A DNA stretch of 64,000 nucleotides from Paramacrobiotus metropolitanus (Eukaryota; Tardigrada; Eutardigrada; Parachela; Macrobiotidae). Every line of letters starts with the position of its first letter. Position 1 is the first letter of the stretch. The DNA is taken from assembly GCF_019649055.1 (NCBI RefSeq), contig NW_026570283.1:620001-684000 (forward strand), in the 5' to 3' direction. Made by a program: the position numbers and the translations under genes. This document shows, piece by piece, positions 1 through 45,003 of the stretch. The notes beneath the pieces are model-generated. The model did not search any database. It was not told where the DNA came from and saw only the letters and a list, made by a program, of their open reading frames with translations.

Positions 1-262
1 GTTCCTTCCGAAAGGTGTACTTCACGCAGCACACGATGACATCGTCGTCCGTCCCGTTGGTGCTGGCCAGTTGATGGTGAGTCAGGAAGTCCAAAATTCC
101 CGTTTCCATCTGGCGCTGTTCATCCAGACGCTCCCGTGGCTGTGAGGGTACGCTGCCGGATACAGGAGCCAATTGAGTCGGAGTACTGCCGTGCTGAGCC
201 AGGACGTTTCGAGTTGAGCTTCCCACAGCACTAGTTTGCTTCTGCACTCCCTTGCCGTCCAT
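1..262 (-). CDS. BTB-ubiquitin family paralogue, first exon (partial, runs off left edge)
   Basis: Read on the minus strand, an open frame starts at the ATG at 260-262 and runs off the window after 87 codons. Its second half matches the first exon of the three plus-strand copies: a PRERLDEQRQMETGILDFL stretch corresponds to PQRLAAQRELEAGTLGLL in copy 3, followed by LTHHQLA and a KYTFRKE block matching MYTFQKD. The N-terminus differs: the FDIVGKGYTIQHSTEYHL segment of the other copies is replaced by a Ser/Thr/Gln-rich stretch. It lies head to head with copy 1, about 1 kb away. The function is unknown. I infer that it is a diverged family member; whether it carries BTB and ubiquitin exons cannot be seen. 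Confidence 0.7.
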   Translation of the reverse strand, partial: MDGKGVQKQTSAVGSSTRNVLAQHGSTPTQLAPVSGSVPSQPRERLDEQRQMETGILDFLTHHQLASTNGTDDDVIVCCVKYTFRKE

Positions 263-1293: not shown

Positions 1294-4178
1294 ATGGCCG
1301 GCAACGGGATGGAAACGCCGTTCGATGTCGTGGGGAATGGCTACACGATCCGGCATTCCACGGAGCACCATGTCGTCCTGCAAAGCGTCAGCCCGTTTAA
1401 TGTACCGGACATCATGCCAGCGTACCCTGCGCGCGACAGCGCAAACGCTCCGCACAATCGGCATCGTCTGGCTGAACAGCGGCAGCTGGAAACGGGAGTG
1501 CTGGACTTGCTGACACATTACCAACTGGCCAACATGGAATCGGGGGTGACGGATGACAAAGTCGTGACGTGTCGCGCTATGTACACTTTCCAGAAGGATC
1601 TTCAGCACCTGCAGTCGACAGCGTGGAATGATTACGGTCAGGGTGCCCTGCAGCGCGTTCGTGAGGCATGGACGGGTCACGAAATTTCTCCCTTGCCAAC
1701 TTGGCTGGAGAATGGCGTGGGACTGCAAGTGTATTGTAAGTGTTTGAAGTAGCTTTGTGTACAACGGCTTCCCAATGCTCCAAAGACAGAGCAATGAAAT
1801 CCCAGTGCAATGATACATCCAGTTGGAATCGTTCCGGGTAGCTGCAGACACATATGTATTTCCCGAAACATCGTACACTACTTATCTCCACAAAAAATTC
1901 CCGTAGTTTTAAATGAAAGTTTGAAGAAGAAATTTAGCGTTTTAACTTTCAACGAGTCAACTCGGAAATCTCGATATTACAAATGTGAATTCCAGCTGGC
2001 AACAATCACCAGTAATAGCAGCTTCTCACTCTGTAGGTGGAGTAAGAAATCCTTTAATTCGCTCTCTTCCCTCTTATCACGTATGCAATGCTGCTTTAGC
2101 GAATCCCACTGATGTTTTCATTGTGTTGTAGTCGAGAAAAAGGTGGCGACGAACCGTGCGCACTCTTCCAGTGACAAATCGAAGCGGGGCTTTGAGATTC
2201 CGTGGGTGGCTGCGATCCATCTGCAACGCGCAGCGGACGACTGTACCCTGACGTCCGTGCAGCTGGCCTTCATCAACCCGGACTACTACGGAAGCCCCAC
2301 TGTCTACATCAACATGGCACCGACCCATGCCACCAATATGGGCTGCATCAACAATATCCTGAAGAACATCCGTGGTCAGACGTACTCGGAGTGCTGCCAG
2401 GAACTGGGCATCTTCCGCGAAGCTTACTGTTTCGTCACCATGCGGGTGCCGTTGCGGCGCTTGCTGGGACAAGTGGTCACTGCATTCCGGCTGACCTTCG
2501 CGGATTGCCAGGCACTCCCGGACACGAGCGAGCTGGCCGTGTGGGGAACGGATAAGGTCGTGCTGAAAACACGACAGGGTGACGTCAAGACAGATCGCCA
2601 AGCCCTGGTTCGTGCACGATTGAACGATTTAAAAACATCTGTTCGCAATTTTTTCAGCAACATTTCAGCTCTTCGGCGTTGAAACCGTTGAATTTAAAAC
2701 AATTTGCTTTGCCTTTTCTAAATTTTGGTAACTGCTTTTCGTCAGATTCTTATTATTTGTTGCCGAAGATTTTCTTCTTCGAAATTTATGATAATACATG
2801 TGTTGATATATACTGAGAATTAGCTCGTTTGATTTTGATACAAATTTGATCGACGTCTGAAATTTTAAACCTTGAAAGTCGGGACTTCGACTCTAGGTTC
2901 GTATATCCTCGAAAATGCGAGCCATCTTCTCAACAAGCGGGCAGGGTAAATTCAGCTCCTACGAAGTGGACTATAACAAGGCGGTCGTGGTGAGCGTTTT
3001 GCATGCGGCAATGGCAGGACACGCATCCCTGCCACTTAATCCGCAGCGAGCGACTGTGTTGTACCTGTACGAGGCAATGAAGCTGGCGTTGAGCTGGGAG
3101 ATTCCGCAGCTGACACTGTGGACGCAGTTGGCGCTGGTGGAGCGCTTGTGCCAGCCGATGGCCAGTCTGGAAGCGATCCCCGTTCGAGATGCAGTCCGTC
3201 TCATATGCGACCAGGCCGACCCCCAAGCAGTGGGCAGCCGGATGATTGTGTGCGGATTGGTCAGTATGCTGCGCATCTTGCATTCAGAAACGGCGCGCTG
3301 GACTCTGGATGAACTGATGGCGTTAATTGCCGGTAAGGCTATCATGTAAATGGCTGACATTGTTGCTGACATGGTTGCTTTGAGTCGTCTTTAATCCAAC
3401 GGCAAGCGAGACTGCGCTGAAATTATTTTTATTTCTTCATTTGAATGGAAAACGAAAACTAACTGAAGTGTGCTCTAACAGCAAACGTTTCGTTACTTGT
3501 CTCTGCTTTTAGTACGAGTATAAAGTGGAAATACTACGATAAACACTATTAGAGACACTTTCTCTCTTTGAAACTATATTAGAAGCGCTAGGCTGCAATG
3601 ACAGACCATTTCGCGCGCAAGCTTCAGGAGGTTTTACGTTCAGTGAATTCGGTTCGTCTGAGACTCTGAATGAGATATGACTTTAAAAAGCACTTGTATT
3701 TGTGATAAGCAACACCGCACTCACTTGCAGACTGCAGTGGTCTTGTGTGCCAGAATACGGCTTTCTAATATTGTATCAATAAAAGACACCATAACTTACG
3801 TGTTATCTTGTTAATAATGCCTTTACCGAAATATTTATCAAACGGTATGTACAGGATGCGTTGAAAAGTGTAATTCACATTCCACAATTTGTAGGGAAGC
3901 CGGAATTGTGGAAGAGTGTCATTCAGCCGCCGCGGTTGGTGCCCGATACCAGCATTGTGGTTAGAACTATGTTCGGTAGAACCTTTACGGTGGCGGTTAA
4001 TTTGGCCAATTGGGTGTACCAGTTGAAATGCCGGATCCAGGTCATGCAAGGTATTCCCATGGAACAGCAGCGACTGGTTTTTGATGGCACACAGCTGAGC
4101 GATAACTTGACCTTAGCCGACTACGGGATTAATGCAAATAGCACAGTACAGCTTGCATTGCGGCTGAGGGGCTGCTGA
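1294..4178 (+). CDS. BTB/BACK-like protein with C-terminal ubiquitin fold, copy 1
   Basis: Four exons (1294-1735, 2132-2607, 2897-3332, 3895-4178) join in phases 1, 0, 1 to give 545 residues. Residues 1-148 have no known match. Residues 149-306 are beta-rich ([17 protein letters not shown] onward), perhaps a very diverged MATH-like fold. The exon 2/3 junction and exon 3 look like BTB: a D-V-LKT strand, an RAIF segment, VLHAAMAG, then [13 protein letters not shown], followed by a BACK-like helical part. Residues 470-545 are a full-length 76-residue ubiquitin fold with QQRLVF at the Ile44 patch and RLRGC at the end instead of RLRGG. BTB proteins usually serve as Cullin-3 substrate adaptors; such a role is inferred here. 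All splice sites are GT-AG. Only the ubiquitin call is near certain. Confidence 0.8.
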
Positions 4179-4363
4179 TGGATGGCGCTTAGCCTGATGA
4201 ATGGATGTTGTAGACTTTTAAGTTTTTAACGACGCTGGTACTTCAGATCAGTAAAATTTTCTCGTTATCGTCTTTTTGAGAACTACCTTATGTTTCCTGT
4301 TTCGCAAGCTGTTTTGGTTTCCTTAAGGATTTTGATTTCATTTTTGCAATCGAGATTCACGGA

Positions 4364-4999
4364 TACAGTGAAACTTCTCTACTACGTACACCCTCCGTTC
4401 CTAGCTTCCTGAACGTTACAAAGGGGTGTACGTAAGGTAGGGGCACTGCCCCTAGGGGCGAATAATAACGCCCCCCAGGGGTAGATATATATTTGTGTGT
4501 AGCAACCGGAGGCGGCGCCGTGTATGTTTTGGAATGTAAAATGACTTCTCTAATTTGACGGCGTTAACGCTTTTGAGCTTTTTCTCCCATAAAAAACTCT
4601 GACGCTTACTTTTCGCGTCCATTTTTAAACAGCTGCTGTAACTGACAGGTAAGCTCCCAAATACGTACGACGTAAATGTTGTTTTTTATCGTTTCGCTGT
4701 TTTTCATCACAAGATCCGGCGTTGGGCAGACTTAAAACTAAAAGCCTAAAAGCCGAAGATTTCTTTGAAATTGTTGTTTCTCATTCTTAGCCAGCTGTAC
4801 GTAACGCAGGGGTTGAATGTACCTTAAATTTGGTCTGACGTTCCATGATAGATGTACGTTATACTTGAAGAGGGGTGAACGTTATAAAGAGAACTGCGCC
4901 TGTGTTATAATATGCCGGACAGTCCGGTTCCCAGCCATATGCACATAATGAAGGGATGAACGTTATAAAAGGGTGCACGTTACGAGGGGTTTCACTGTA
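4364..4999. mobile_element. Pogo/Tc1-like MITE
   Basis: The ends are inverted: CAGTGAAAC near 4366 and GTTTCACTG near 4997, with similarity continuing inward over about 35 bases (CTACGTACACCCT against AGGGTGCACGTTACGAG). TA dinucleotides flank both ends. The interior repeats short GAACGTTA/GTACGT units and has no transposase. The CAGTG termini with TA duplication fit the pogo/Tc1 group. Confidence 0.65.
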
Positions 5000-5168
5000 G
5001 TGATACGTTGCTTGATTCAAACGATAATCATGTTACGACGTTTTAAAGTAACTGTGCTTTACTGTTATCTTGTATCTTGGAAGTTTAATCTCTTTGCAAA
5101 ACATTCTTTAATCTCAGAAAAAGTGAAACCTTTCGGGAAAAGGGATTTACGCTTCATTCAGTCCTGAA

Positions 5169-5213
5169 CCGTCCGGGAAAGTCTTTTAGTTCCCGTCCGG
5201 GAAAGTCTTTTAG
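5169..5213 (+). repeat. Short direct repeat upstream of copy 2
   Basis: CGTCCGGGAAAGTCTTTTAG occurs twice with a 4-base gap. A single degenerate version (CGTCCGGGGAAGTTGTTTAG) lies upstream of copy 3 near 13168, so the unit predates the gene duplication and was doubled at copy 2. Confidence 0.7.
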
Positions 5214-5276
5214 CAGTACTAGCATAAACGTGCACACTGCATTAACGTGCGGCGGTGTTGAGATAATTTACTGGAT

Positions 5277-5290
5277 CTGTAGCTGCACAA
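5277..5290 (+). promoter_or_regulatory. Conserved promoter motif, copy 2
   Basis: CTGTAGCTGCACAA lies 66 bases before the ancestral start position at 5343. It is preceded by AATTTACTGGAT, which copy 3 shares. Confidence 0.45.
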
Positions 5291-5342
5291 ATCTGTTCAT
5301 GCAGTTCCTCTCTTAGTTCCGCTCAACTGACGAACGAAAGCA

Positions 5343-7884
5343 ACGGCCGACGACGGGATGGAGAAGTCATTCGATATTGTGGGGAATGGCTACACGATCC
5401 AGCATTCGACGGAGTACCACCTGACCCTTCACAGCATCAGCCGAATGAATGCTGCACTGATCGTGCCATCGCTCCCGGACAGCAGCAGCGGGCCTTCACT
5501 GCAGCATCCGCAACGCCTTGCTGCTCAGCGGGAGATTGAAACGGGAGCGTTGGACTTGCTGACCCATTACCAAATGGCCAACATGGAGTCACGGGTGCTG
5601 GCTGATGCTGCAGTGACGTGCCGTGCCATATACACTTTCCGGAAGGATCTTCAGGATCTGCAGTCGACGGCATGGAATGATTACGGTCAGGGACGCTGCA
5701 ACGCGTACGTGTGTCACGGACTGGCCGTGAAATTTCTCCCTTGCCAGCCTGGCTGGAGAATGGCGTGGGACTGCGAGTGTACTGTAAGTAATTGAGAAAT
5801 TCAACCTACAGTAGTGTAAGCCGTGATTGGTTGGCCGCCACACAGTCCCATTTTAATCCGTTGCAAACTTGCAGTGCCCTGTTTAGGGTAAATCTTACTA
5901 CATATTCCATAATGTCTTACTCCATAATCAAGGTGGAACAAAAAGTTTCTCTTGAAATAATCGGTAGCTTTTCAATCAGAGTTTTGCATAAGAAAAAAGG
6001 TTTTCGCCGGAACCACCAACACAGAATTTTGAAAAATTTTCTGAATTGGGGGTCCCCGCGGGACTAACTCGATCCTTAGCCTGCGAGGAACTGAAATGGT
6101 TCTAACATCGATTATAATTTCAATCATGAATCCATTATTGGAATAAGAAACTTTTGGGAGGGCTGGAGTGGGCTCGAGAAGCCATGCCCACCATCCCGTC
6201 CCCGTAACTCGGACGGCACAAAAATTCGCAAGGGTGGGGGCGGGGGGACATTGAGATTTTTTTACGACGGGGTTCACAAAAAATCGAGAATATAGTATCC
6301 TTGGTGTCCTTCCCCTCCCCGACAACCCCTGGCTTCGCGGTTCCCCTGTATGAACTATGAAGATCATGTACTGAAATGTTTTGCAGTTCAAGAAAAGGTT
6401 TTGACAAACCGGCAGCACTCATCCTCTTTAAAGCGGGGTTTCGAGGTGCCATGGCGGGCCACGCTGCACTTGCAGCGCGCTGCGGATGACTGCATCCTGA
6501 CGGAAGTGCAGCTGGCTTTCATTAATCGGGATGGCTGCGGCATCCCCACTGTTAAGATCAACATGGCGCCCACCCATGCCACCAACATGGGCTGCATCAA
6601 CAACATACTACCAAACATCCGCGGGCAGACATATTCCGAATGCTGCCAAGAACTGGGCATTTTCCGTGAAGCCTACTGTTTCGTCACCATGCGGGTGCCG
6701 TTGCGGCGACTGCTGGGAGAAATGCTCAGTGCGTTTCGGCTGAGCATCTCGGAATGTCTGACGCTGGCCGACGTGGTTGACTGGAAAGGAGCGGATAATG
6801 TGATGCTGAAGACCCAGCAGGGAGTCATTGAGATGGATCGACACATTCTGGTGCGTGTCGGGTTCATCGTCCAGGACATTTTTTTTCGCTTTGACATCCC
6901 AGTATACTTTATTACTTAAGCTAGATAATTTCTTCATGAAGAAAACGCGCTCGTTTAATTCTGACGCTCGAGAAGAAGCTCGTTTAATTCTGGCTTGATT
7001 TTGGTTTGATATTTGAAATCTGAAGTTTGGTTTCGACCTTAGGTTGGTATTTCTGCAAACACGCGAGCCATTTTCGCTGGGGGCCTGCATGGAAAAGTCA
7101 GTTCGTACAATCTAGCCTACAGCTAAGCTGCTGTCGTAACCGTGCTGGAGGCGGCCACGGTGGGGCACGCATCCTTGCCCGTTGATCCCCGCCGAGCGGC
7201 TCCGTCCTTCCTGTTCGAGGTCATGCAGTTGGCGTTGAGCTGGGAAATTCCGCAGCTGCAACTGTGGACGCAGGTGGTGTTCGTGGAGCGCTTGTGCCAT
7301 CCGATAGCCAGTTCCGAGCAGATGCCCGTTCTGGATGCGGTTCGCATAATCGGCGAGCATGCGGTTCCAAATGAAGTGGGCAGCCGTTTGGTGGTGTGCG
7401 GTTTCATTAGTGTTCTGCGTATCCTGCATTCCGAGACCGCGCGCTGGACGCTGGACGAGCTGATGGAGTTGATTGCAGGTTAGCCCAATGTTTGAACAGT
7501 TTTGCGTGTTCTTTAAAAGAAATCGCGGTGAAACTGATTAAAGACTGAAATCCGAAGCTCACGAAAGGTTTGAATTGAATTTTGTAGTTTGCAGGAAAGC
7601 CGGCAATGTGGAAGAACGTCATCCAGCCGACGCGATTGCAGCCGGATACCACGATTTTCGTAAAATCACTGATGGGGAAAATCCTGTCTGTGGAGGTGAA
7701 TTCGGCCTATTGGGTGTATCAGTTGAAATGCCTCGTCCGGGACAGGGAAGGGGTTCAATTGGATCAGCAGCGACTGTTATATGCTGGCAAGCAGCTGCAG
7801 GACAACCTTACTTTAGCGGACTACAAAATAACCAGGCATTCGACAGTACATCTTGTTGTGCAAATTAAGGGGTTGCTAATGTAG
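5343..7884 (+). pseudogene. BTB-ubiquitin family copy 2, disabled
   Basis: The four exons match copies 1 and 3 (5343-5783, 6387-6850, 7043-7478, 7595-7884) with intact splice signals, but three lesions are visible. The ancestral ATG is ACG at 5343; the next ATG is five codons later at 5358. One base is missing near 5695 (GGGACGCTG where copy 3 has GGGACAGCTG), shifting the last third of exon 1. Exon 3 has an in-frame TAA at 7124-7126 where copy 3 reads AGA. The ubiquitin exon is open and keeps AGKQL, but ends in KGLLM because of an apparent one-base insertion. I infer a pseudogene. Exons 2 and 4 alone would still encode intact domains. Confidence 0.8.
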
Positions 7885-8202
7885 GGTCAGCCCACGCTCG
7901 CTTTGGATGGCTAATTTTTTTTCTTTGTTTTCTTTCATAGAAATGTATTACGTCCCTGAATTTTTCATTAGAGTAATTTGTTTGAATTCCTTTTGATACT
8001 GGTTGCGTTTATGGACTGCATTTACCAGATTAAATAGTTGGCGGTAAATTTATAGTACCGCACTTACGATGTTTAAGAAAGCCGTTGCCGTACTTTGCTG
8101 ATTTCTTCTTCTGCCGAACTAGCTGAAAGACGAAAAATATAATATGGCCATTCGCAGTTACGGTTTGGACTGCTTCGAGAACAGAGCTCGTATTTTAAAG
8201 TT
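7885..8202. other. Intergenic
   Basis: This stretch holds the 3' flank of copy 2. I see no coding or structural signal. Confidence 0.4.
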
Positions 8203-8206
8203 TTAA

Positions 8207-8890
8207 GGTAGCGGCCGGTACATGGTATCAAACTTTGTGTATAGGCGCGAAAACATGCACTTTCGCGCACTCACAAACAGTTTTTTGCTTTGTTTTATGA
8301 CATTCTGTGCTCCGATGTTTTTTGTACATTGGCGTGAAAAGCATTTGTGCGCGCAACAACCGGTTCCGGGAGCTATGACTGTAAAAAAATTCCAGAATGT
8401 TTAAACTTAAAATGCATTCAGATGTACCACAAGTCTCATTATGGGCCGATTTTCTTTAAACTTCGCATTTCAACGCACATATACGTCATTTTTAAGTCGA
8501 ACCACGGTTCCGAGATTTTGTTTACGCTTTAAAATAAATTTTCGAAGTTATTGTAAAATTTAAAAAAATGCTGGAAATCTGGTTCGATGTAAAAACGATT
8601 TCCAGAGTTATGTTCCATTTATGTGCAATATTTCAAGAAGATCGGCTTATAATGAGACTCTTGGGGCACCTGAACACATATAGTATATCAAGTTTTTGAA
8701 GTTTTCAAAAAGCCACAGCTCCCGAACCGGATGTTCCGCGTACAAACGGCTTTAACGCAATCATTGCAGTGTATACATTTCATTTGATTACAGAACGTCG
8801 TAAACAATGTAAAAACATGTTTGAGAGTGCGCGAAAGTGAAAGTTTTCGTTTTGTACACGAATTTAGTACCATGCACCGTGTCCCTTCCC
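8207..8890. mobile_element. piggyBac-like MITE with long inverted arms
   Basis: TTAA at 8203-8206 and 8891-8894 flank a 684-base element whose two halves are imperfect inverted copies. Examples are GGTACATGGTATCAAAC with GTTTTCGCGCCTAT-like blocks on the left against AGTACCATGCACC on the right, and AGTCTCATTATGGGCCGAT against ATCGGCTTATAATGAGACT. TTAA target duplication and GG-starting ends fit piggyBac. There is no transposase. A solo right end lies at 48640-48717. Confidence 0.7.
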
Positions 8891-8894
8891 TTAA

Positions 8895-10179
8895 CTTCGT
8901 TGGAGTACTACTCTAGTACTAATTCTCTGACGGCAAGAGCGATCTTGCAGAACGACTGCTGGTACAAGCGTCAGCCGACAATTTTGCGAAAACTTTTTAA
9001 GAAGACTATCTCCTCCCTTCCTTTATCCATGGTCTTTGGGGTTACTCGGAAGCAGCAAAGAATTTAAAATATGTCGCAGTGTTAGGCGCCGAGGGGCGTG
9101 CTTACTCCGTGCATACGTTTGGTTGTTCATGATCCGACGTTTACCGGTGTACGGTATAACAGAGTAGAATCTGAGTAGACTGTATGAGCCTCGTCAGTGT
9201 GTGCTGGGAGGATGGGTATCCGGCGCGCCTTCACTCGTTGTCGGTTTTCCTGTGTTATCTACAAGGACTGCTGTGTGTATTTTTTGTCACTTCCTGTTTT
9301 ACCCATTCGCGACCAGGCGTGCAGAGATCGTTAAGGGAAGCCCTACAAACACGAAGCGGGTTTGTGAAAACGGAAATAGTATGACAACAGTGACCGAACA
9401 CACTGTCGTGGCAATTTTGTTCGATTTTGCTCCACAAACTGCTCACATGCGCTTTCTGAGTGACGGTTTCCGGCAGACCATCCAACATCCAAATTCTTAC
9501 TCGTTTTTTGTTAGTATTTTATTGAGGACGGAATGAAATCTCGTTGCTGCGAACGTTCTGGCTACAATGGACAGCAAACGTGATATTCCAGAGAAACGCC
9601 CGGTTCAACTCGTTGCCGGACAAAAATGGAGACCGTTAACAATGATACGTTGACGCTTAATCCCGAAAAGTGGTTCTCATGAAGCAGCTTGCTGAAAGAT
9701 ATCGTAAGGTGACATAATTTGTTGCAAAAATCAACGATTTACAAAACGTTATGAACAGATAAAATTTATTACCAATTTAAGTTAACAGCGGAAAAATTTC
9801 ACACACGATTTTTCATGGAAAGAGTTTTAGCCGTCCCGTCCAGCTCCTCAAACGTGACAGTCACCTTTCGTTTGCCTTTAACCAGCTGGGAAACAAGGGA
9901 CAATTGCTTCGACGAAACATTCCAAACACGACAGCCATCCATCGGATTCTTCTGCGCTGACACCAAACGAGTCTGGCGCTTCGGATTCGTATCTTTGTTC
10001 AGTCCGACTAGAGTCAGCTGCTGTTGTTCCATAAATCAGTGCCGCCGTTTTTCTGGCAAGTGGTACGCATGTTTAACCTGCAGCCGCCAGTAAAAATTAT
10101 TGTGATCATTCTAGAATAATTGGCCATTAGTATTGCTTAGCATTACTACGTACTAGTACTTAACGGGCAATCGTTACAG
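8895..10179. other. Intergenic with one unassigned minus ORF (9799-10032)
   Basis: The minus ORF encodes 77 residues starting MEQQQLTLVG and ending in a basic VTVTFEELDG region. It has a real ATG but no family I recognise, and no exon that I can connect to it. Treat it as a weak hypothetical gene. Nothing else stands out. Confidence 0.25.
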
Positions 10180-10650
10180 ACCGGAATCACGCTGATGAAT
10201 TTTATTGTTATCCTGCTTCTCAACGTCGCACTATTGCGTGAGATTCTGCGCATCAAAAACTCCAACACTACGAACACGTACGCCGTCCATGCTTCCCACG
10301 CCAACTACGAGAATTCCGGCAGGTGTGCCAATAATCATAGTGGCCGTTTTGTTGTAAGCCCGGAGAAGAATGCCTTAATCTTTCTGACAGCCGTTGTCCT
10401 GCTTTTTCTCATCACACAGTTACATTACGTTTTTCACAACACCTTCCGCCTTCTAGAAACGTTTTGTGAACGCGAGTATCCTATGATGTGGCGACGCTTC
10501 GTTGTGCCTGTCGGCACCTTCCTCCTCAACCTCAATTCTCCTATAATTTTTTGGTCTACTGCAGTGTTGACAAGAACGTCCGCAGTACAAGCCCGTCCGG
10601 ATAATGAGCACGTAAAGTTACAGCTACCGCAGCGCGAAGTTAGCGATTAG
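10180..10650 (+). pseudogene. Rhodopsin-like GPCR fragment, TM5 to TM7
   Basis: A GT-AG-type acceptor (CGTTACAG) precedes an open exon. It has a hydrophobic segment (MNFIVILLLNVALL), a polar loop of about 60 residues, a second hydrophobic segment (ALIFLTAVVLLFLI), and a third with LLNLNSPIIFW in the position of the TM7 NPxxY motif (here NSPIIF). This is the layout of TM5, loop 3, TM6 and TM7 of a family A receptor. The first four helices are not found upstream, so this is either a 3' exon with distant partners or a fragment. Loss of NPxxY argues for relaxed function. Its 3' end is repeated downstream. Confidence 0.5.
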
Positions 10651-11100
10651 CACGATGGCCATTGCACTACGTTTGCCACAATACGTAAATGCGCTCCGCA
10701 GTTAGATTATCCCTTACTGCACCGACCGTTTTCTGACCACCTTCCGCCAGGCAACTACGATTATTCCCATCGAAATATATGGCGTGCACCAGGCCACCAG
10801 CCAGCCAAACGCATGTTACGTGGTTCAACCCTATGGCGTGGCGTGGCGTAGTATCTTGTTTGGCGTAACCCATGAATTTACATTTTTCGCTGTTCTCTTT
10901 CGTGCTCATCATCCGGACGGGCTTGTACAAGCCGGTCCGGAGTTAGAGCACGTAAAGGTACAGCTAATGCATAATAAGCGCGATGTTAGCGCTTAGAAGA
11001 TAGCCACTGCACTACAATTGGCGCAACTCATGAATTTGCATTGTTCGCTGTTCTCTATCGTGCTCTGACTCCGGACCGGCTTGTACAGTAATGTCTACCG
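10651..11100 (+). repeat. Degenerate repeats of the GPCR 3' end
   Basis: The segment ending the GPCR exon (GCCATTGCACTACG at 10655) recurs as AGCCACTGCACTAC at about 11000. A GAGCACGTAAAGTTACAGCT block recurs as GAGCACGTAAAGGTACAGCT near 10946. A third partial copy (CATGAATTT, TTCGCTGTTCTC) starts near 11029. Each retains the C-terminal GPCR reading only in part. Confidence 0.55.
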
Positions 11101-11618
11101 TCTACTGTACAGTAATGTCTACCGTCTGTGTCATGTTATGCGGCAAACGGAGCGCAGTGTGCTGAATCGCAGGGAACAGTTTCAGGTGGACAGCGGGCAT
11201 CAGTCTGATATCTCATTTCCGGCTGACGATTCTTCGTGAATGAACTGCTAAAGAATATATATCAAATATACAGTAGAACCTACATGTAATAACATGTACA
11301 TGTCGGTATTACGAGTACATGCATGGTACACTTGAAGTTTTATAGTCCTAACTCCTAACGTAAATCGTAGACACGTTTAACCTTGTGAATCAAGTGCGTT
11401 GACGTAACATCGGTAATACCGATTTCACGCGGATCAACAACCAGCATCAGGTTCTTAGGCGTGTCCACCTGCACATGAAAACATCATCCTGCAGATTACT
11501 GTACCTGTATGAACCAATCTGATTGACTGCATAAAGAAATTTTTAAAAAAGATATGGTGAAGTGCGGTACGATCCTACGAAAAAAAAACTTTTAACACAA
11601 AATTTTCGTATCCACCTA

Positions 11619-12025
11619 TGGACGACTTCGTACCACTTCAAAAACGCGACCCGTTTTATCGCTTCCGTATTCCATTTATCGGTAAGTATGTATCTGTGCG
11701 CACACGTATGTCGCCTTGTCTGCTGTAACGTGAATAAGTAGGGTTTGCCAAGAGGCGCTCTCACTGTATTCCTAAATCCTAACTGTTCCACCTGTATTCC
11801 TATCTTTTTTCCATGCGGAATACACGCAAAACACGCTGCAATACAGGAGAATACAGGAGGAATACGCGGAATACAGGCGGATGACTGCGGAGCACTCAAG
11901 GAATACCAATCGCAACATGTGAATGCACGCAGAAAACGCGAGAGTATCGGAGGAATACTTAAGAATATTAAGAGTACAAAGCCGAAAAAATGGGTCGCAT
12001 GTTTGAAATTGTACGAAGTCGTCCA
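11619..12025. mobile_element. MITE with TA duplication and GTATTC/GAATAC arms
   Basis: TGGACGACTTCGTAC at the left end and GTACGAAGTCGTCCA at the right end are inverted, each flanked by TA. Inside, GTATTC units on the left give way to a run of GAATAC units on the right (11819-11880), so much of the element can fold on itself. There is no coding capacity. Confidence 0.65.
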
Positions 12026-12779
12026 TATATTATAATATCGATATCGATTTTCAGCGTTTCCACCAATCCGGGTCTAAATTTTTCCTGCCCCACCAGTTCA
12101 CCGCAGTCCAAAGTTGACAATTCAAAAAGTAATAAAAAAACTAAGGTTCTAAATTATGAATGTACGTACTTCCGCATTTGCGCCTAAATTTCCTAGAATA
12201 AAAGAAAGATAAAAGATAAATTTCTTCGTCCAGTTTCTCGAATAAAAGATAAATTTCTTCATCCATTTGGGGCGAGAACTGATTAATTCCACGAGAATCG
12301 TATGTGCGGGGTTTTGTGCTTACGGCTTCTAGCCCGAACAAATCCAGTAAAGGTCACAGTTTTTTATGAGGAAAAAACAAGAAACATTTCCCCTACCCGA
12401 AATACTAAAGTTACACCCATGAAAATACTTCGTCGAATAACGGCGATTTTGAATCCAAAAATGGCAAATTTTGAATTTGGTTACCCGGGACATCGTCCAA
12501 CTCCACCCATTTTTTCCAAAGAATTTGTAAAAAATTAAAAGCTTTGTATAATGTTGGTTTTTTTCCTATTTTTTATATGGAGCGAACTCTCTCAAATGGA
12601 CTCTTTCAAATGAAATTAGAAGCTTGTTAATTAAAGGCTGGATGGACCCGCAACACTTCAAAGAAGCAGACCGACATTTTGTTCGGCCACCCAGTACATA
12701 CACAAAGGATACTGCAGACTGCAAAGATCGTTAGAATACAGCAGTAAACTAAAAGCGGTCAAAGAAAATTGTGATGATA

Positions 12780-12876
12780 CATGAGCGATACGTAGAAGAT
12801 ACCGCGGGATACGACGGGATACTGGGGATACAAGTGAAACAACATGCCCAGAAAAATTTAAACGTGCGCAAAGTCG
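12780..12876. repeat. Right end of a related GATAC-rich MITE
   Basis: Several GGGATAC/GGATAC units lead into GCGCAAAGTCGTCCATAT, matching the right end of the element at 11619-12025. The left end was not found. Confidence 0.45.
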
Positions 12877-13233
12877 TCCATATCTACCTGTGTCGGCGAC
12901 TCGACGTAATCGCCTCATTCGATGTCCTGTATGGCCACAGTGTTAGGCTTACGTGTCTTTACTCTTCGGGTTCTCGCATGCCAGGATGATTACAATTTGA
13001 AATTAATGTTCTGCTTTTCACTGCTGCTTTTCTCAGTTTAATTAACTACTGATTCTAGTTCCTTACATTCCGCAGGTATTTCTGAGGGTTCCTGCAGCTT
13101 TTCAGCGTAAGTTTTCAGTGCGATCCACAAATAAGACAAAGAACTGATCGAACTGATCAAAACTCACGTCCGGGGAAGTTGTTTAGCATGAGCGTACACA
13201 GACGCGGGGTAGCGTTGAGAGAATTTACTGGAT
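12877..13233. other. Upstream region of copy 3
   Basis: The last 100 bases resemble the copy 2 upstream region (CGTCCGGG unit, TTGAGAGAATTTACTGGAT). I see nothing else. Confidence 0.4.
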
Positions 13234-13248
13234 CTGTAGCTCCATAAG
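13234..13248 (+). promoter_or_regulatory. Conserved promoter motif, copy 3
   Basis: CTGTAGCTCCATAAG lies 63 bases before the ATG at 13297, at the same place as in copies 1 and 2. Confidence 0.5.
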
Positions 13249-13296
13249 ACGTAAGTGGATGCTCGTTGAATTCCGATTAGGTGACGATCAAAAGCT

Positions 13297-15883
13297 ATGG
13301 CCGACAACGGGATGGAAAGGCCGTTTGATATTGTGGGTAAGGGCTACACGATCCAACATTCCACGGAATACCACCTGGCCCTTCACAGCATCAGCCCCTT
13401 GAATACTGCACAGATCGTGCCATCGTCTCCTGCCAGCAGCGTACCTTCACCGCAGCATCCGCAACGCCTTGCTGCTCAGCGGGAGCTAGAAGCGGGAACA
13501 CTGGGCTTGCTGACCCATTACCAACTGGCCAACATGGAGTCCGGGGTGCTGGCTGATGTTGCAGTGACGTGCCGTGCCATGTACACTTTCCAGAAGGATG
13601 TTCAGGATTTGCAGTCGAATGCGTGGAATGATTATGGTCAGGGACAGCTGCAGCGCGTACGTGTGGCACCGACCGGCCATGAAATCTCTCCCTTGCCAGC
13701 CTGGCTGGAGAACTGCGTAGGCCTGCGAGTGTACTGTACGTAATTCAACCTACTCGGTAGTGTCAGGCCTGATTTGTTGGCCGCCAGGCCCCGCATTCAG
13801 GCCCAATCTAATCCATTGCGAAATTTGTTACAACGAGTTCATAAAAAAATCGAGAATATACACTTCCTTAAGTGTGAGTTCTTCTGCCCCCCCCCGGCCC
13901 CCCCGTGATACATAAATCACAACTGCGTTTAGTGATTTATGTATCACGTAACTACCTGTGCACTGTACATGCTGGTTTGAGTTTGACAGTATCATGAAGA
14001 TCATGGAAGAGCCTCACCATGGTTAGTTAAATGCTGTTGATGTTGTCGACGAATGCTTTGCAGTTCAAGAAAAGGTTTCGACGAACCGAGAGCATTCATC
14101 GTCTGACACTTCAAAGCGGGATTTCGAGGTGCCCTGGCGGGCTACGCTCCATCTGCAACGCGCTGCGGATGACTGCATCCTGACGGAAGTACAGCTGGCT
14201 TTCATTAATCCGGATGATTGCGGCAGCCCCACTGTCAAGATCAACATGGCGCCGACCCACGCTGCCAACATGAGCTGCATTAACAACATACTGCAGAACA
14301 TCCGCGGGCAGACATACTCGGAATGCTGCCAAGAACTTGGCGTCTTTCGTGAAGCCTACTGTTTCGTCACCAAGCGGGTGCCGTTGCGGCGCTTGCTGGG
14401 AGAAGTGCTCAGCGCATTTCGGCTGATGATATCGGAATGTTTGACACGGGCAGACATGGTTGACTGGAAGGGAACGGATAATGTGATGCTGAAGACCAGC
14501 CAGGGTGTCATCGAGATGGATCGACAGATTCTGGTGCGTATAGGTTTTTGCTGTATAACTTTCGTAAAGTTGCCTTTCTTCGCTGAATGTCATACGGTAT
14601 AATCCCATTTGCTCGGTATAGTCCCATTTGTGAAGTCGATCGGCGTATCAAAGATCAAACAGGAGAAGCGCGCACTAGTGAATATTTGTGGCAACGTATA
14701 AGCGTGGAAATTCCGCGCGGAAACGCGGCTTCTGTCCTGGGGACGGTTGGATGTTCTCGAGAGTTAGAAGAGTTGTTTTACTTGTTCTAATTGTGGGGTT
14801 TTTTAAGTATATGTATAAATGGCATCTGCTTGTCAAGTACCCATCTTAACTTAAAATTTAATGATCAGCGGTTTGAGGGAACCATCGACTACCGGGGTGA
14901 ACGATAACTGAATTGTACAAGTAAAATTAATTTTTTAATGTGATACTTTAAATGAACCTTATTCCTTTAGAAAACACGGCAGCTCGATAGATTCCGAAGT
15001 GATTTTGATTTGATGTTTTAAATCTTGAAAGCTTGTTTTCGATCGTAGGTTGGCATGTCCCCGAAAACGCGTGCCATTTTCGCAGAAGGTGTACATGGAA
15101 AAGTCAATTCGTACAATTTAGACTACAGCAGAGCGACTGTGGTAACCGTGCTGGAAGCGGCCATGTTAGGACGCGCATCCTTGCCGGTGGATCCGTGCCG
15201 AGCGACTCCGTCCTTCCTACACGAGGTCATGCAGTTGGCATTAAACTGGGAAATTCCGCATCTGCAGCTGTGGACGCAGGTAGCGTTCGTGGAACGCTTG
15301 TGCCATCCGATAGTCAATCTGGAACAGATCCCTGTCTTGGATGCGGTCCGGATCATCGGCGAGCATGCGGATCCAAACAAACTGGGCAATCGGATGGTTC
15401 TGTGCGGGTTGATCAGTGTACTGCGTATCCTGCATTCAGAGACCGCGCGCTGGACGATGAATGAGCTGATGGAGTTGATCGCAGGTTCAAACAATTTTGC
15501 GTCGTCTTGGAAACAAATCGGAGTTCAAACTGATGGAATTAAAGAACTGCAGTAAATCGAAAGTGCATGAAAGGTTTGACATCAGTTCTGTAATCTGCAG
15601 GTAAGCCGGGAATGTGGAAGAACGTCATCCAGCCAACGCGATTGCTGCCTGATGCCACGATTTTCGTTAAAACTCTGATGGGGAAAACTCTCACGGTACC
15701 AGTGAATTCGGTCTATTGGGTGTATCAGTTAAAATGCGCGATCCAGGACATAGATGGGATTCCATTGATCTGCAGCGACTGATATTTGCTGGCAAACAGT
15801 TGTGCGACAATCTCACTTTAGCGGACTACGGCATGGCCACGCATGCGACAGTGCATCTTGTTCTGCGACTGAGGGGATGCTAA
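13297..15883 (+). pseudogene. BTB-ubiquitin family copy 3, frameshifted in the ubiquitin exon
   Basis: The exons are 13297-13735, 14064-14533, 15049-15484 and 15601 onward. The first three are open and in phase (1, 0, 1), with the N-terminal region, the beta-rich block and BTB/BACK as in copy 1. Exon 4 starts as a close ubiquitin match ([13 protein letters not shown]). It then loses one base near 15766, where copy 2 has TTGGATC and this copy has TTGATC, and terminates at 15780-15782. Past the deletion the ubiquitin sequence continues in the next frame (LIFAGKQL ... LRLRGC) to a stop at 15881-15883. The deletion falls in a GG pair, so a base-calling error is possible and the gene may be intact. 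The exon 3 donor (GTTCAA) is weaker than in copy 1. Confidence 0.75.
13905..13947. repeat. Perfect hairpin in intron 1 of copy 3
   Basis: GTGATACATAAATCAC and its exact reverse complement flank an 11-base loop, just after a run of C. The corresponding intron of copy 2 lacks it, so it was gained after duplication. Confidence 0.7.
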
Positions 15884-20084: not shown

Positions 20085-20154
20085 TTAATAGGATACTGCA
20101 TTCTTTCGTGCTAATGCAAGCAGAAACGATCGCGCGTCGGAACTGAGCACTGCC

Positions 20155-22698
20155 ATGCCATTGGCAGTGCTCAGTTGGCAGAGACCAGCGAAGCCCGTTA
20201 AAGAAGAAATTGCGCAACGCGCAATTCCACAGCTCCAAACGGCCGAGTTTGGTGTAAATACGGAGAGCAGTTTTGCCGTGGAAGCTTTCAAGGCGGCTGT
20301 AGAAACTAGATGTTTTCCAAACAATAACCTTGTTATCAGTCCGTACTCCGCGGAACTTGTCCTGGCAGCGCTATTGCCCGGAACCGATGGTGAGCTATAT
20401 TCATCGCTGATGAAACTTCTGTGTCCCGATGAAAGGTCTTTTGCCGACTTAGTAAAGAGTTTAGATGCAGTGAACACGGATGGCGCGTTGAACAGCGCAA
20501 ATGCTGTCTTTTACGATGCCAGCTGCCGATTGGCAAGTCAGTACCAGGAAGCTGTGGAGATGTCAATAAAATGTGGGTTTATTCAAACGCCGTTTCGAGC
20601 TGCTCCAGATCGAGCTTTGGAGATTGTCAACCATTTCGTTGCGGAGAAGACTGACGGAAAGATAACGTCATTTTTCCCCGAAAGCCGACCCAATGCAGCC
20701 CTAATTCTAATCAATATTATAGATTTTGCCGGGCAATGGGCAGCGCCATTTAATCCGCAACATACTAAGCAAGACATCTTTTACTGTACCGGCGGGGTAG
20801 AAAAAACTGTGAATTTTATGAAAGAAGAACATGCTTGCATTCGTCATTACAATGTTTTGCAATACGCCAGAGCTGTTGTCGAGGCCGGAGATCCTAAGAT
20901 CATTATCCTGGATGTAAAAGGAATGAAATTCAGTGTCATGATTTTATTACCAGCGGAGTATTCCGCTGATGGAATGCAGAAGCTGATAAATATGTTGACG
21001 ATACAGCGGCTTCTATCGTGGCGACTGAAAAGCGAACCCGATGGTATGCTGTACATCTTGATTCCCAAATTTCGCATCCGCTGCAGCACGGACCTAATCC
21101 CGGCAACAGTAAAAGTGGGCCTGGAGCCGATGTACATACCTTCTACGGATAACTTTTCGCGGATGTTTTCTGACAAAACCGAACTGAAAATAGATGAATT
21201 CAAACAAGAAGTGATTTTAGGTAAGCACTGCATCCGTATTATAATTTTCTAACTGGCAGTTGGGAATCCTGGATTCGCTAAGTTCTCGAAAAAAGAATAA
21301 TCGGTGAACTTTTGATTATTTTCCGAGTTTATTAATCTTTTCAGATGCACAAAATTAAAAATCAAATTAAGCAATTTGAAAGTAGGCAGTGCACTGTCCA
21401 TGTGCAGGACCACTTTCTTGGCGTCCGATCCGTATAGCCGCGGTACGTCTTTTCGGATCATTGGCTTCAGGACAAGGTCGATAAATACCTTGTGATCAAC
21501 TTTGGTCTCAGGGGGAACGACGTACATTGCAGTCTGACCGCGCCAGGAGATGCCCATTGCCAGCATCACTTTTTTGGGCCAGTTTTTGCGGGGCAACTTT
21601 TGCCAACTTTCAGGAACGACAACATTTTTCCGCTTGTAGTAGTAGTCTGTCTGCCCGGATAAATCATCAGTAGTAATCCACATCTCGTCCATTGTTAAAA
21701 GAAACTTCAGTTTTCGTCGCGATAAATACCTCAAAAACGTCCTGGCGCGCTGGGCCCGTTGTACAGCTTGGGTCGCCGACAGCGCGTGGACCTTCTTCTT
21801 TTTCAGCAACTTCGCGTCCAAATTCTTGGCCAAAATTCGGCTCACAGATCTAGCAGAGATCCGTAAACGTCTCCCCTTCTCCCGAATAGAAGGAGGATTC
21901 GGAGAATCAATCAACTTGGACACTTTCCGGATGTTCTTCTGGATGCACACTGTAGGCTCGTTCTGCGGTGGCAATTTTTTCGTCTCTGGAGGGCTCGCGC
22001 ATAGTCGGGCTCGATTTTTCTTGATGATCCTTTCAACCGTGCTCTTACTGAGTGGTTTCTGTAGCTCAGATAATTTTTCCACAATTTTCCGAATAGATAA
22101 ACCACTGGCATGTAGGAAAATCACTAGTTCACTACAGCCTTACGTTCAAAATCAACTTCTCGAGGCATTTCTAAACATTTCAACGTTAACTGCATTTCAA
22201 TAAACTCAAAATAAAATTCTGTACAACTACACAAGCGAGTATAACAGCCCAAACTACAGGGAAATTAGCAGACGAATTTAGTTTGCACTGTCTTCAACTT
22301 GGCTGCCGCGCACCGTATCTCAAATTTGTGAACGTAAATTAAAAACTGAAAGGTATGGATTCGGACAGTATGACTGAGTTTGTTTGTGACCTTTTTTATC
22401 AACACCAGCATAGATCCGTGTTTGGCTTTTAGCTCCATTTGAGTAGAGCGTAGTAATGCTATTGACAGCAGGTAATTTGTGCTCCTCTTTCGAGTTCTCT
22501 GAACTTCCATGAAATTTTGTAGATGTGGATGAGTACGGCGTGAAAGCGACGGCTGTAAGTGGGTCACACTTGGTGTGTCATGCATTAGCTGAACTGCAGC
22601 CAGAATTCGTAGCCGATCATCCGTTTTTGGTGGTCATTTGGAATGAGGTGGTCGGTGTACCAGTATTTATCGGACAGATCTGCGATCCAACCGCGTAA
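20155..22698 (+). CDS. Serpin
   Basis: Two exons (20155-21220 and 22523-22698) join in phase 1 to give 413 residues, normal for a serpin. Exon 1 has the early NNLVISPYSAELVLAALL block, the NANAVFYDA strand, and an FxxQW-like IDFAGQWAAPF segment. Exon 2 begins DVDEYGVKATAVSG, the hinge of the reactive loop, and ends with FVADHPFLVVIWN and PVFIGQICDP, the serpin signature region. Counting 14 residues on from the hinge glycine places P1 at His (CHA). The small residues at P12-P8 fit an inhibitor, though P14 is Val. No signal peptide is evident, so it may be intracellular or have an upstream exon. The intron carries a mariner relic. Confidence 0.88.
21249..22168 (-). mobile_element. Tc1/mariner transposase relic inside the serpin intron
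   Basis: Read on minus, an ATG at 22166-22168 begins MPREVDFERKAVV, then the frame breaks near 22127 (consecutive stops) and resumes as ELVIFLHASGLSIRKI. A helix-turn-helix region, a DEMW motif (first catalytic Asp) and a VVLHMDSA motif (second Asp) follow. After HMDSA the sequence becomes unlike a transposase and ends, so the third catalytic residue is lost. It is a truncated, frameshifted copy, opposite in strand to the host gene and confined to the intron at 21221-22522. Confidence 0.85.
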
Positions 22699-31130: not shown

Positions 31131-32916
31131 CTGGTCACTGCCATTGCCATATCTGTTCAGTTCATCTTCGTCAACACCTGGCTGGAAAAAAATCGAAAAC
31201 AAAATAAGTATGAAAAAAATAGGAAAGAAAATTAGAACTTAGTAAATTATAATCAAAATAGGTAAGAATTTGCAAAACTTATTGCGAGGGATCCTATGTA
31301 ACAGACAAGCACGAGGAGATCACGAGTGAGCTTTATTGTACAAATAAAGGGGGAACAATGCTGCGTAATAGTAGGAAAGCAAGAACAAAGCACTGATGGC
31401 TAAATCTAGCAAGTGGATGCCAGGAAGGTTCTTGAGCTTCTGATAGCGTGAAAGAAGTGCTGGCGGCAACCACGTGCTGTGTGCCATCAGCTGTGTGATG
31501 ATGCGCAGACTGGACTCTATCCAACGCGAGTCGTACGCCTCTGACATGCCTCTGGGCGGGAATCCGAGCTCCTGCGAAGGATGCTCCGACTCGGTACCGC
31601 ACCAATACCGCACAACTCTCCGGTTGGACCCATGTGGGGTCGCCGGTACGCGTTCTCTGGCAGTGGGAGTCCGGTGTCTGGTCGACCGTCCCTTCTTCAC
31701 TTCCGAACCCATGAGTGGAAGCCACTCACGGCCAAGAAATCCGGAAGCCGCTCGGGCGTTTCGTTGGACCGGTGATGCATCTGTTGGCTGGCTTCTTGCT
31801 TCTGTTGGCATCGGAGAACAATGTGAAAAGAAAAATGTAATGAAAGTTTATGCAGCGCGAAAGAAAGTATGAAATAAAGTTTAATCACAATTCCAGTGAG
31901 CAAAAGGGGTTACAAAACAGATCTGTCAAGGAGATCAAACTAGAAAAATACAATTCCGTTTGTTAGGAAAAATACTAAAAAAAAATGCAAAAATCTGTCC
32001 GGGGGTCCTATTCCGACTAGGATGACGTCCACGGGGCAATTGAGTCTCCACGGGGTCTCCTGTTTACTTTCATCCGGTAAGGTTGAGTCCGGGGCGTCGA
32101 TTCCCGGGTTACCCGTCATAACCGGTTACATTCACCGAAGTCGGATAAGCACGGTTAAAAACTTACTTCCGACTCGTATCCGTCCGTTCGGGATAGAGAG
32201 GCACTGTTGCGGTTGCAAATGCCGAGGCATCCTCTCTGAATGGGGAATAGGACCGAGGTCGGTTTGACCAAGGTCGGCCTACCGACAAGTCGATCGGCGG
32301 CTAGGAGAAATTTGGCTATGTTCCGAATTCTTAGAGCTCAGGTCGGAAAAAGCTGTATGTAAGTCATGCGGCCTGTGTGGTCGTCATGTACAGCAGTTCC
32401 GTTCCAATGTGGTCGGTTGCAACCGTTCAATCTGCTACCACGAGCCTGGTTTGGAGTAATCCGAGTCGAACTGGCTCGAAGGTCCGATCGGAAATCGTGG
32501 GTTCTTTCGATGGAAGTGGCAGGTCGACTTCCATCGTAGGTCGGCTATCCCGTCCGTCGGTGGTCGACAAGGGTAAACCTGCAATAACATACCCATGTGG
32601 GGCTGAACAAGCTCCTTCAAGTCGAGTTCGTCCATCACAGACAGCTATCGATCTTCCTCCGTCGTGTTGACTGAGTTTCCGACTTCCGACTTGTGGTCGG
32701 TTATGGTCAACTTTGGAAGGTCGGAAAAAATCGAAGGTTGGTTTCCGAGCTCAAAAAATCGAAGGTTGGTCGGACAGAATCGGAGGTTGGTTTCCGAGCC
32801 GACTGGATCTGTGTGATCCGAGACGGTCGACCTTCAGCCATGGCGTTTGTTGCCAGTTTGGTCGATTCCTTTTCCTTGTCCCGTTCCTTCTCTTTCTCGT
32901 ACTCATTCACTCTCGT
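31131..32916 (-). other. 3' non-coding end of the large retroelement (probable LTR region)
   Basis: Just past the last stop of the third coding region, the minus strand has a purine-rich run (32868-32912), the place and composition expected of a polypurine tract. Below it, 32716-32800 repeats AAAAAATCGAAGGTTGGTTT-type units. The GTCGG-rich composition continues down to about 32000. I could not find a matching copy near 48-49 kb, so LTR limits are not established. Open frames here have no recognisable motifs. Confidence 0.4.
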
Positions 32917-37974: not shown

Positions 37975-38150
37975 TGTTGCTTGCTGTCAAGGAAAGGAAA
38001 TACGGCGCGTTAGAATTCTACCAACTCCCGTACATTCAACTGAAGATGTTCCGGTCAACTGAAGAGATTCCATTTCGACACAAAAGGTCCATCTATACCT
38101 AGCTACTGTTAAGCTACCTAAAACTTATTCTAAGTTTTCCACCTATGGCC

Positions 38151-39044
38151 CTATGACTGAGTCTGTTCTGTTGTGACTTTTGTTTTGGGGGTCTTAGTTT
38201 TTGCTGTTTTGACTGGTTTCTCCGAGTCTGCCCGTCCTTCGGATATTCGTTCTATGATTTCTTTATGGGCTTCATCTTCAGCGACTTCAGTTTCCTCCAG
38301 CATCTTTTGTGCTGTCAGCTTCGGTTTCTTAGCTGTCCCATACTTCCGTTTCGGCTTAGTCGGTTTGACTGCCTGATCGGCTGCTACGACTTCGGTAGTC
38401 CGTGCCGGTGTGTTCGGTAAGTCGATCTTCCGCTTTGTGTACTTGCGCTTAGGCTTGATCCGTTGGACTGCAGAGTCGGCTAGAACGACCTCCGTGGTCG
38501 GCGCCGACGAGTCGGTTTCATTAACCGCCCTCTTTTTCCGAGCTGGCTTTATCGCCGGCTTCAGTTCATCCGTAGGTTGGTTGGCTAGCTGGTCCGGCGT
38601 TTTCGAATCGTCTTCCGACTTCTTCGGCTGCTCGGTAGTCGGCTGAGCTTTGTCATCAGCTTCGTCCGAGGTCGATGCTGGTTCAGCAGCTATCACATCT
38701 TGCTTCTGAAGTTCCTTCAGTGTTGGTGTCTCGAAGTCGGTCGGAGGTTTCTTCCGAGGTCGACCTCGTTTCTTCTTTGCCGTCGGTTCGGTTTTATCCG
38801 TGTCGTTAGTCGGATGCGAGGGTTTCTCGACGGTTTCTTCCGGTTTCTTCTTCGGCTTCCGAGTAGCTTTCCCTTCTGTTGGGTCGGCTACTGGGCCTGT
38901 TGACCGAGTTGCTGGTCCACTTGTCTCGGCTCGGCAATGTTTTACTCGGTCAACGGCTACCGTATCTTTACGTCCGTCTTCGCATCGAAGCCCGAAGGAG
39001 CAAGTTGTTTGGGCCAACGTAGTTGATGACCGTCCAAACTCCAT
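38151..39044 (-). pseudogene. Retroelement pol C-terminal basic tail
   Basis: After a short integrase C-terminal stretch (VAVDRVKHCRAE), the frame is very rich in Lys, Pro and Thr, with KKRGRPRKK, an AT-hook-like core, and repeated TTEVV-DxAV-KPKRKY units (three copies). Such a tail may bind DNA or chromatin; that role is inferred. Confidence 0.6.
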
Positions 39045-39089
39045 CGTAGCGTACCTTCCGAGTTGGATCTTTAGTCGGAAATTCCACCG

Positions 39090-41715: not shown

Positions 41716-41838
41716 GTTTTTGAATCCGACCTTTGTGGTCGGTTCGGGTTGGTCGGCTTTATCCGTCGGTTGAGTAGGTCGACTCGCTCCGTCCTGATTC
41801 TCAAGGTCGGTTGGCTGTGAGCTTACGTCGCTCAGCCA

Positions 41839-44452: not shown

Positions 44453-44493
44453 CGCTTGCCGAGCACCTTGTTGCGCTTGGGGAGGTCGGTTAC

Positions 44494-44979: not shown

Positions 44980-45003
44980 CTCTTTGCCATTAACGAAGTA
45001 CCG

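What the first reader, a model, noticed from the sequence alone, without database searches (positions are those of the whole stretch)
1294..15883. A tandem family of BTB/BACK-like proteins ending in a ubiquitin fold
Three tandem genes share an unrecognised N-terminal region, a beta-rich block, a BTB/BACK-like block and a complete 76-residue ubiquitin fold at the C-terminus. BTB proteins usually recruit substrates to Cullin-3 ligases, and ubiquitin fusions are usually ribosomal proteins or polyubiquitin. I know of no described family with a BTB adaptor ending in ubiquitin. A built-in ubiquitin could dock E2, a ubiquitin-binding partner or the proteasome in cis. Ubiquitin similarity is seen directly; BTB/BACK is by motif; the role is inference.
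Basis: partly seen in the sequence, partly recalled or inferred. Interest (0 to 1): 0.9.

Follow-up and report, generated by a model that had tools for sequence, protein, structure and literature searches.

The report
Tardigrade BTB adaptors ending in ubiquitin
A water-bear genome carries about thirty gene copies, some broken, whose proteins look like SPOP-type adaptors (proteins that select others for ubiquitin tagging) with a permanent, non-detachable ubiquitin built onto the end, a combination that our searches met in no other organism.

Summary
The fusion is real. Copy 1 (exons 1294-1735, 2132-2607, 2897-3332, 3895-4178) encodes 545 residues, identical to the NCBI-predicted protein LOC129593768 of the tardigrade Paramacrobiotus metropolitanus. 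Copies 2 and 3 are broken genes. The family is genome-wide: 27 of 30 ubiquitin matches examined are linked to a BTB region, and 21 of 24 places read are open frames from BTB, whole or in part, through ubiquitin, so the fusion does not rest on guessed splicing. AlphaFold2 gives a helix, a beta-sandwich, a BTB, BACK-like helices and ubiquitin. For a paralogue with a truncated ubiquitin, all 16 Foldseek hits with E <= 0.001 are SPOP. Pfam finds no BTB, MATH or BACK. The ubiquitin has lost Gly-Gly (0 of 23 members); 14 of 23 end Gly-Cys. The CUL3-binding phi-x-E motif is mostly lost (kept in 3 of 25). Three protein searches met the non-ubiquitin part only in this tardigrade. Likeliest role, inferred: an oligomeric SPOP-like adaptor whose fixed ubiquitin is read in cis, perhaps instead of CUL3.

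The parts
1294..1735 (+). copy 1 exon 1: N-terminal tail, long helix (residues 52-83) and first strands of the beta-sandwich
   Evidence: joined exons identical to NCBI P0006; AlphaFold2 model
2132..2607 (+). copy 1 exon 2: rest of the MATH-like beta-sandwich, hinge helix, first strands of BTB
   Evidence: AG|...|GT splice ends
2897..3332 (+). copy 1 exon 3: rest of BTB and BACK-like helices
3895..4178 (+). copy 1 exon 4: linker and 76-residue ubiquitin ending LRLRGC, stop
5358..5783 (+). copy 2 exon 1, broken: no ATG at the position used by copies 1 and 3, frame break
6387..6850 (+). copy 2 exon 2
7043..7478 (+). copy 2 exon 3, in-frame stop at 7124
7595..7880 (+). copy 2 exon 4, open ubiquitin frame; it does not end Gly-Cys
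   Evidence: PF00240 E 1.1e-20
13297..13735 (+). copy 3 exon 1
14064..14533 (+). copy 3 exon 2
15049..15484 (+). copy 3 exon 3
15601..15883 (+). copy 3 exon 4, ubiquitin with a frame break; the last part, in another frame, ends LRLRGC
2..262 (-). first 87 residues of a fourth, divergent copy (P0004, 529 aa), running out of the window
   Evidence: 100% match of P0004 at the window edge; rest in L017

Best explanation
A lineage-restricted family of SPOP-like adaptors with a non-conjugatable ubiquitin fixed at the C-terminus. Shown here: the gene and protein architecture, BTB and ubiquitin folds (predicted models), absence of Gly-Gly, a short alpha3-beta4 loop mostly without the CUL3 motif, and dN/dS below 1. 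Inferred: the BTB (and possibly the N-terminal helix) makes dimers or oligomers, the MATH-like sandwich binds a partner or client, and the ubiquitin acts as a permanent mono-ubiquitin mark that ubiquitin receptors (proteasome, p97/Cdc48, or an E2/E3) read through its Ile44/Ile36 surface. The client would then be delivered without waiting for ubiquitin to be added, and perhaps without CUL3. Because Gly76 is missing, the ubiquitin should not be released or conjugated in the normal way (general knowledge of ubiquitin, not tested).
Against: No binding, expression or proteomic data. BTB by sequence is weak: Pfam BTB matches 0 of 27 members, a PDB profile search gave no BTB up to E 10, and hhalign's own probability is only 21-49% although its P-values are 1.1e-3 to 1.8e-4. 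MATH is supported only by the SPOP alignment: 0 of 27 in Pfam, and profile comparison with four MATH-containing sequences of the genome is no better than shuffles (10.1 against a mean of 12.5). The beta-sandwich is the best conserved domain (mean pairwise identity 0.61, 28 pairs of 8 proteins) and ubiquitin is less conserved (0.47, 21 pairs), the reverse of what a diversifying client receptor with a constant tag would show. The Leu8 position is L, M, V or I in only 14 of 23, and several members have polar or charged residues at positions 8, 44 or 70. TM-scores to SPOP are low (0.20-0.25 by query length in the 16 significant rows, rmsd 9.5-30.5), so the relative placing of domains is not matched.
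Confidence: 0.4

Rival explanations
1. Ordinary CUL3 substrate adaptor: BTB and the 3-box-like helices still recruit CUL3-RBX1, and the C-terminal ubiquitin only regulates it (autoinhibition, or priming of the E2 as a backside-bound ubiquitin would).
For: All 16 PDB hits with E <= 0.001 of the P0010 model are SPOP, a CUL3 adaptor; helices follow the BTB where the 3-box lies and KBTBD2 aligns through them.
Against: The alpha3-beta4 loop is 7 residues in 24 of 25 scorable members (3 in the other) and phi-x-E occurs in 3 of 25; among own-genome BTBs it occurs in 9 of 14 scorable of 16, though there a longer stretch was scanned, which favours chance hits. [quoted passage not shown]
Confidence: 0.25
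2. Cysteine-76 ubiquitin: the family is a redox-sensitive decoy whose terminal cysteine forms a disulphide (or unusual thioester) with E1 or E2, damping ubiquitination, as reported in vitro for Bacteroides fragilis BfUbb.
For: Cys sits at the Gly76 position in 16 of 23 members, and the very end is Gly-Cys in 14 of 23, also in members where residues 72-74 have changed (ends QYGC, QTGC, LVGC). BfUbb has a C-terminal cysteine and formed a covalent complex with human E1 under non-reducing, not under reducing, conditions (PMC3352274, passages read).
Against: 9 of 23 lack the Gly-Cys end, and on the tree the label is no more clustered than shuffled labels (7 changes against a mean of 7.4), so it is not strictly required. 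Arg72, which I recall as an E1 contact, is kept in only 12 of 23.
Confidence: 0.1
3. Fast birth-and-death family of a defence or genomic-conflict kind (like the expanded MATH-BTB and F-box families of nematodes), with the ubiquitin mimicking polyubiquitin to switch on a signalling partner, as OASL does.
For: About thirty copies, many in clusters, with broken copies beside an intact one. MATH-BTB and F-box families are over-represented among indels of natural C. elegans isolates (PMC2822765, passages read). OASL carries two C-terminal ubiquitin-like domains, and human OASL is said to mimic polyubiquitin (PMC6019448, passages read); OASL proteins were among the hits of the first protein search.
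Against: Pairwise dN/dS gives no sign of positive selection, though no site test was run; the domain expected to vary (MATH-like) is the most conserved.
Confidence: 0.2
4. Annotation artefact: the ubiquitin exon is a separate gene that is not spliced to the BTB exons.
For: In copies 1-3 an intron separates them, and no transcript was available here.
Against: 21 of 24 paralogous places read are open from BTB, whole or in part, through ubiquitin; copy 1 has AG/GT splice ends with a kept frame, and the NCBI model is identical.
Confidence: 0.02

Closest known systems
SPOP / MATH-BTB adaptors (HIB, bath genes)
   Same: Order sandwich-BTB-short BACK helices; best structural match by E-value; expanded in a lineage, as MATH-BTB is in C. 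elegans (PMC1257465, passages read)
   Different: MATH not recognisable by sequence; extra N-terminal helix; short alpha3-beta4 loop mostly without phi-x-E; C-terminal ubiquitin added. The main text of the 2005 BTB survey holds no 'ubiquitin-like'
Ubiquitin precursor fusions (polyubiquitin, UBA52, RPS27A; recalled)
   Same: A ubiquitin unit with 18-44 of 76 positions identical to the genome's own ubiquitin, encoded in frame with another protein
   Different: Ubiquitin is last, not first; no Gly-Gly in any of 23 members, so it is not a cleavable precursor
OASL-type C-terminal ubiquitin-like domains
   Same: Ubiquitin-like unit as the last part of a larger protein (PMC6019448, passages)
   Different: Two UBLs behind an OAS-like domain, no BTB
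Bacteroides fragilis BfUbb
   Same: Cysteine at the C-terminus and no terminal Gly-Gly (PMC3352274, passages)
   Different: Free, secreted bacterial protein, no adaptor domains

Membership tests
MATH-BTB (SPOP-like) adaptors | BTB/POZ fold | tested here: met
   predicted model matched by Foldseek and VIA; hhalign 34.7 against own-genome BTBs, maximum of 300 shuffles 24.2, but hhalign probability 49%; Pfam BTB matched in 0 of 27 members
MATH-BTB (SPOP-like) adaptors | MATH domain N-terminal to BTB | tested here: inconclusive
   9-stranded region at the right place and alignment to full-length SPOP; no sequence support (only four reference sequences); not folded and searched alone
MATH-BTB (SPOP-like) adaptors | phi-x-E CUL3 contact in the alpha3-beta4 loop | tested here: not met
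   loop 7 residues in 24 of 25 scorable members; motif in 3 of 25
MATH-BTB (SPOP-like) adaptors | 3-box / BACK helices | tested here: inconclusive
   three helices after BTB; KBTBD2 aligned to model residue 448; Pfam BACK in 0 of 27
MATH-BTB (SPOP-like) adaptors | binding to CUL3 | not testable with these tools
   needs a binding assay
Ubiquitin family (PF00240) | beta-grasp fold and sequence similarity to ubiquitin | tested here: met
Conjugatable ubiquitin / ubiquitin precursor | C-terminal Gly75-Gly76, exposed or cleavable | tested here: not met
   0 of 23 have Gly-Gly

The most novel reading that the evidence does not exclude
A BTB adaptor family in which a fixed ubiquitin has taken over the job of CUL3: the phi-x-E contact was lost as a non-releasable ubiquitin was gained, giving a 'pre-ubiquitinated' delivery adaptor that brings clients to ubiquitin receptors without an E3 reaction, with a Gly-Cys end that may add redox control.
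Probability: 0.25. Interest if true: 0.85.

Novelty: new variant of a known kind. Interest (0 to 1): 0.62.

Why it matters
If the reading is right, a lineage has many times copied an adaptor that carries its own degradation or signalling mark. That would be a natural counterpart of engineered degraders and a direct test of whether one built-in ubiquitin is enough to route a client. It would also show how a BTB adaptor can leave the CUL3 system. The terminal Gly-Cys gives a cheap first experiment.

Tried and rejected
Pfam on single exons, on ten frames and on 27 members: ubiquitin-type models match, BTB, MATH and BACK do not. That absence is from sequence models and does not exclude the folds. 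PDB sequence search with the profile lacking ubiquitin: three matches up to E 10, none BTB. MATH by profile comparison: no signal, with four reference sequences only; the BTB part aligned collinearly but weakly (P 0.029). MATH in the own genome by PF00917: nothing, and the control was silent too; PF22486 gave six matches, among them a gene I read as a SPOP orthologue by eye. VIA on copy 1 was filled by ubiquitin, so I folded P0010, whose ubiquitin part is truncated. Viral structure library with that model: five hits with E <= 0.001, the best an entomopoxvirus BTB protein (E 8.5e-7); the named rows are mostly BTB/POZ or kelch-like proteins of poxviruses and giant viruses. A viral BTB-ubiquitin fusion was not tested by this, since the model lacks a whole ubiquitin. 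Chance similarity and unspliced-exon artefact rejected. The Gly-Cys end is not clustered on the tree beyond shuffles, so I do not claim strict conservation. The 23 members leave out copies 2 and 3, L024 (odd end), L014, L019, and the further copies in L010, L012, L018 and L023; in these 9 the ends were not all read. Genome-wide search with the copy 1 protein did not complete, so family size rests on ubiquitin matches: 30 of its 65 lie in the window or in loci I fetched, and the others were not all examined. Check run for this report.
Full report
WHAT WAS CLAIMED. Three tandem genes at 1294-15883 would share an N-terminal region, a beta-rich block, a BTB/BACK-like block and a terminal ubiquitin.

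WHERE THE WINDOW COMES FROM. The window lies in a 169.8 Mb genome in 533 contigs, on contig C63. Protein searches returned records of the tardigrade Paramacrobiotus metropolitanus whose contig lengths (874946, 3823291, 266940, 634185, 697799, 392426) equal those of C63, C3, C158, C83, C75 and C123. The copy 1 protein is identical, 545 of 545 residues, to NCBI LOC129593768.

THE OBSERVATION. Joining 1294-1735, 2132-2607, 2897-3332 and 3895-4178 gives an open frame of 545 residues with AG/GT intron ends. The last 76 residues are ubiquitin-like (PF00240 E 6.7e-21). Copies 2 and 3 repeat the exon order but are broken: copy 2 at its start, in exon 1 and by a stop in exon 3 (window 7124), copy 3 inside the ubiquitin exon. 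The breaks may be recent, since exons 1-3 of copies 1 and 3 still differ with NG86 dN/dS of 0.21-0.32. None of the 48 proteins held matches copy 2 or 3 at over 72% identity over 50 residues. A fourth copy (P0004) starts at window 262 on the minus strand, head to head with copy 1.

THE FAMILY. A ubiquitin search of the genome gave 65 matches. I fetched 20 stretches; with the window they hold 30 of the 65. tblastn with copy 1 in these loci lists 31 ubiquitin-ending rows. Copy 1 appears twice, so there are 30 distinct ones. Of these, 23 are a single alignment from within the BTB region to ubiquitin, 22 of the 23 without a stop. Four (copies 1-3 and one in L018) have neighbouring exons, and 3 (third copy in L012, L014, L019) are partial or broken. 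The script's own total of 29 includes the duplicate and a false neighbour in L012. Of 24 places read as frames, 21 are open from BTB, whole or second half, through ubiquitin; the other three are L010 (first copy), L014 and L023 (first copy). The fusion therefore does not depend on splice inference. The midpoint-rooted tree of 23 members has two main branches and some long-branched members. In one search, 49 of 60 pairwise comparisons gave a dS, all with dN/dS below 1 (0.15-0.64), so the family looks selected as protein; the highest value involves the ubiquitin piece of broken copy 2.

DISTRIBUTION. Three searches of 5.8 billion proteins were made. The first (8-sequence profile with ubiquitin; only the 7997 candidates sharing most words were scored) gave 46 hits: 14 of this tardigrade (13 named, and P0004 on the same contig) and 32 others, which cover at most 26% of the first query sequence, that is essentially the ubiquitin part. 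The second (7-sequence profile without ubiquitin) gave 16 hits and the third (copy 1 residues 215-405, E up to 1) gave 10; all are P. metropolitanus by name except P0004, which is unnamed but whose first residues lie in this window. The search needs shared five-residue words, so distant relatives in other tardigrades are not excluded.

THE UBIQUITIN. In 23 members aligned with the genome's own ubiquitin, Lys27, Gln40 and Gln41 are kept in 23, Asp58 in 19, Arg42 in 19, Lys48 in 7, Lys63 in 1; the Ile44 position is I/V/L/M in 19, the Leu8 position L/M/V/I in 14. None has Gly-Gly; 16 have Cys at position 76 and 14 end exactly Gly-Cys. Polyubiquitin genes on C3 and C108 end LRLRGG. So this ubiquitin looks like a fixed domain, not a precursor.

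CUL3. CUL3 adaptors use a phi-x-E motif in the alpha3-beta4 loop and a 3-box (PMC10564622, passages). Here the loop is 7 residues in 24 of 25 scorable members and the motif is present in 3 of 25. Among 16 own-genome BTBs used as control, 14 are scorable and 9 have it, scanned over a longer stretch. This is a motif test only.

HOW IT MAY WORK. I favour a SPOP-like oligomeric adaptor with a permanent ubiquitin that is read in cis, possibly in place of CUL3 recruitment (0.4). Against it, the sandwich is more conserved than the ubiquitin (0.61 against 0.47 mean identity). Rivals are a regulated CUL3 adaptor (0.25), a defence-type expansion with polyubiquitin mimicry like OASL (0.2) and a cysteine-ended E1/E2 decoy like BfUbb (0.1). 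None of these steps was tested by experiment.

PRIOR WORK. In the held open-access library, the titles and abstract starts listed by searches show no BTB-ubiquitin fusion family. The 2005 BTB survey lists MATH-BTB, BTB-BACK-kelch and others and has no 'ubiquitin-like' in its main text (passages). A review of the beta-grasp fold holds 'BTB' once; the passages shown treat the POZ domain as a derived beta-grasp fold and show no POZ-ubiquitin fusion (passages). The Hypsibius/Ramazzottius comparison mentions BTB once, in a table of gene families (passages). The P. metropolitanus transcriptome paper has no 'BTB' in its main text. Subscription papers are mostly not held, so absence from print is not shown.

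Noticed in passing
window 2-262, minus strand: First exon of a fourth family copy (P0004) lies head to head with copy 1, about 1 kb between start codons; a shared promoter is possible.
   Followed up: partly
own genome, e.g. C70, C132, C8, C59, C216: Large expansion of conventional BTB genes: 150 matches scored of 1033 candidates, many close together on these contigs; MATH_2 matched only six places in the genome, exon by exon.
   Followed up: partly
model of P0010, residues 33-67: The N-terminal helix seems to take the place of BTB helix 1 in 17 of 50 VIA rows, as if the sandwich were inserted between helix 1 and strand 1 of the BTB.
   Followed up: no
window 20092-21252, plus strand: 386-residue open frame that looks like a serpin (by eye, no search run).
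   Followed up: no
window 21249-22139, minus strand: Open frame that looks like a mariner-type transposase (by eye).
   Followed up: no
window about 32000-48000: Stretch with strong AT skew (-0.24 to -0.38 per 2 kb) and long minus-strand frames that look like a retroelement (by eye); only noted.
   Followed up: no
C83:217518 and C83:224110 (L028, L027): Divergent pair on a long shared branch (1.38), without the Gly-Cys end; possibly a separate subfamily.
   Followed up: no
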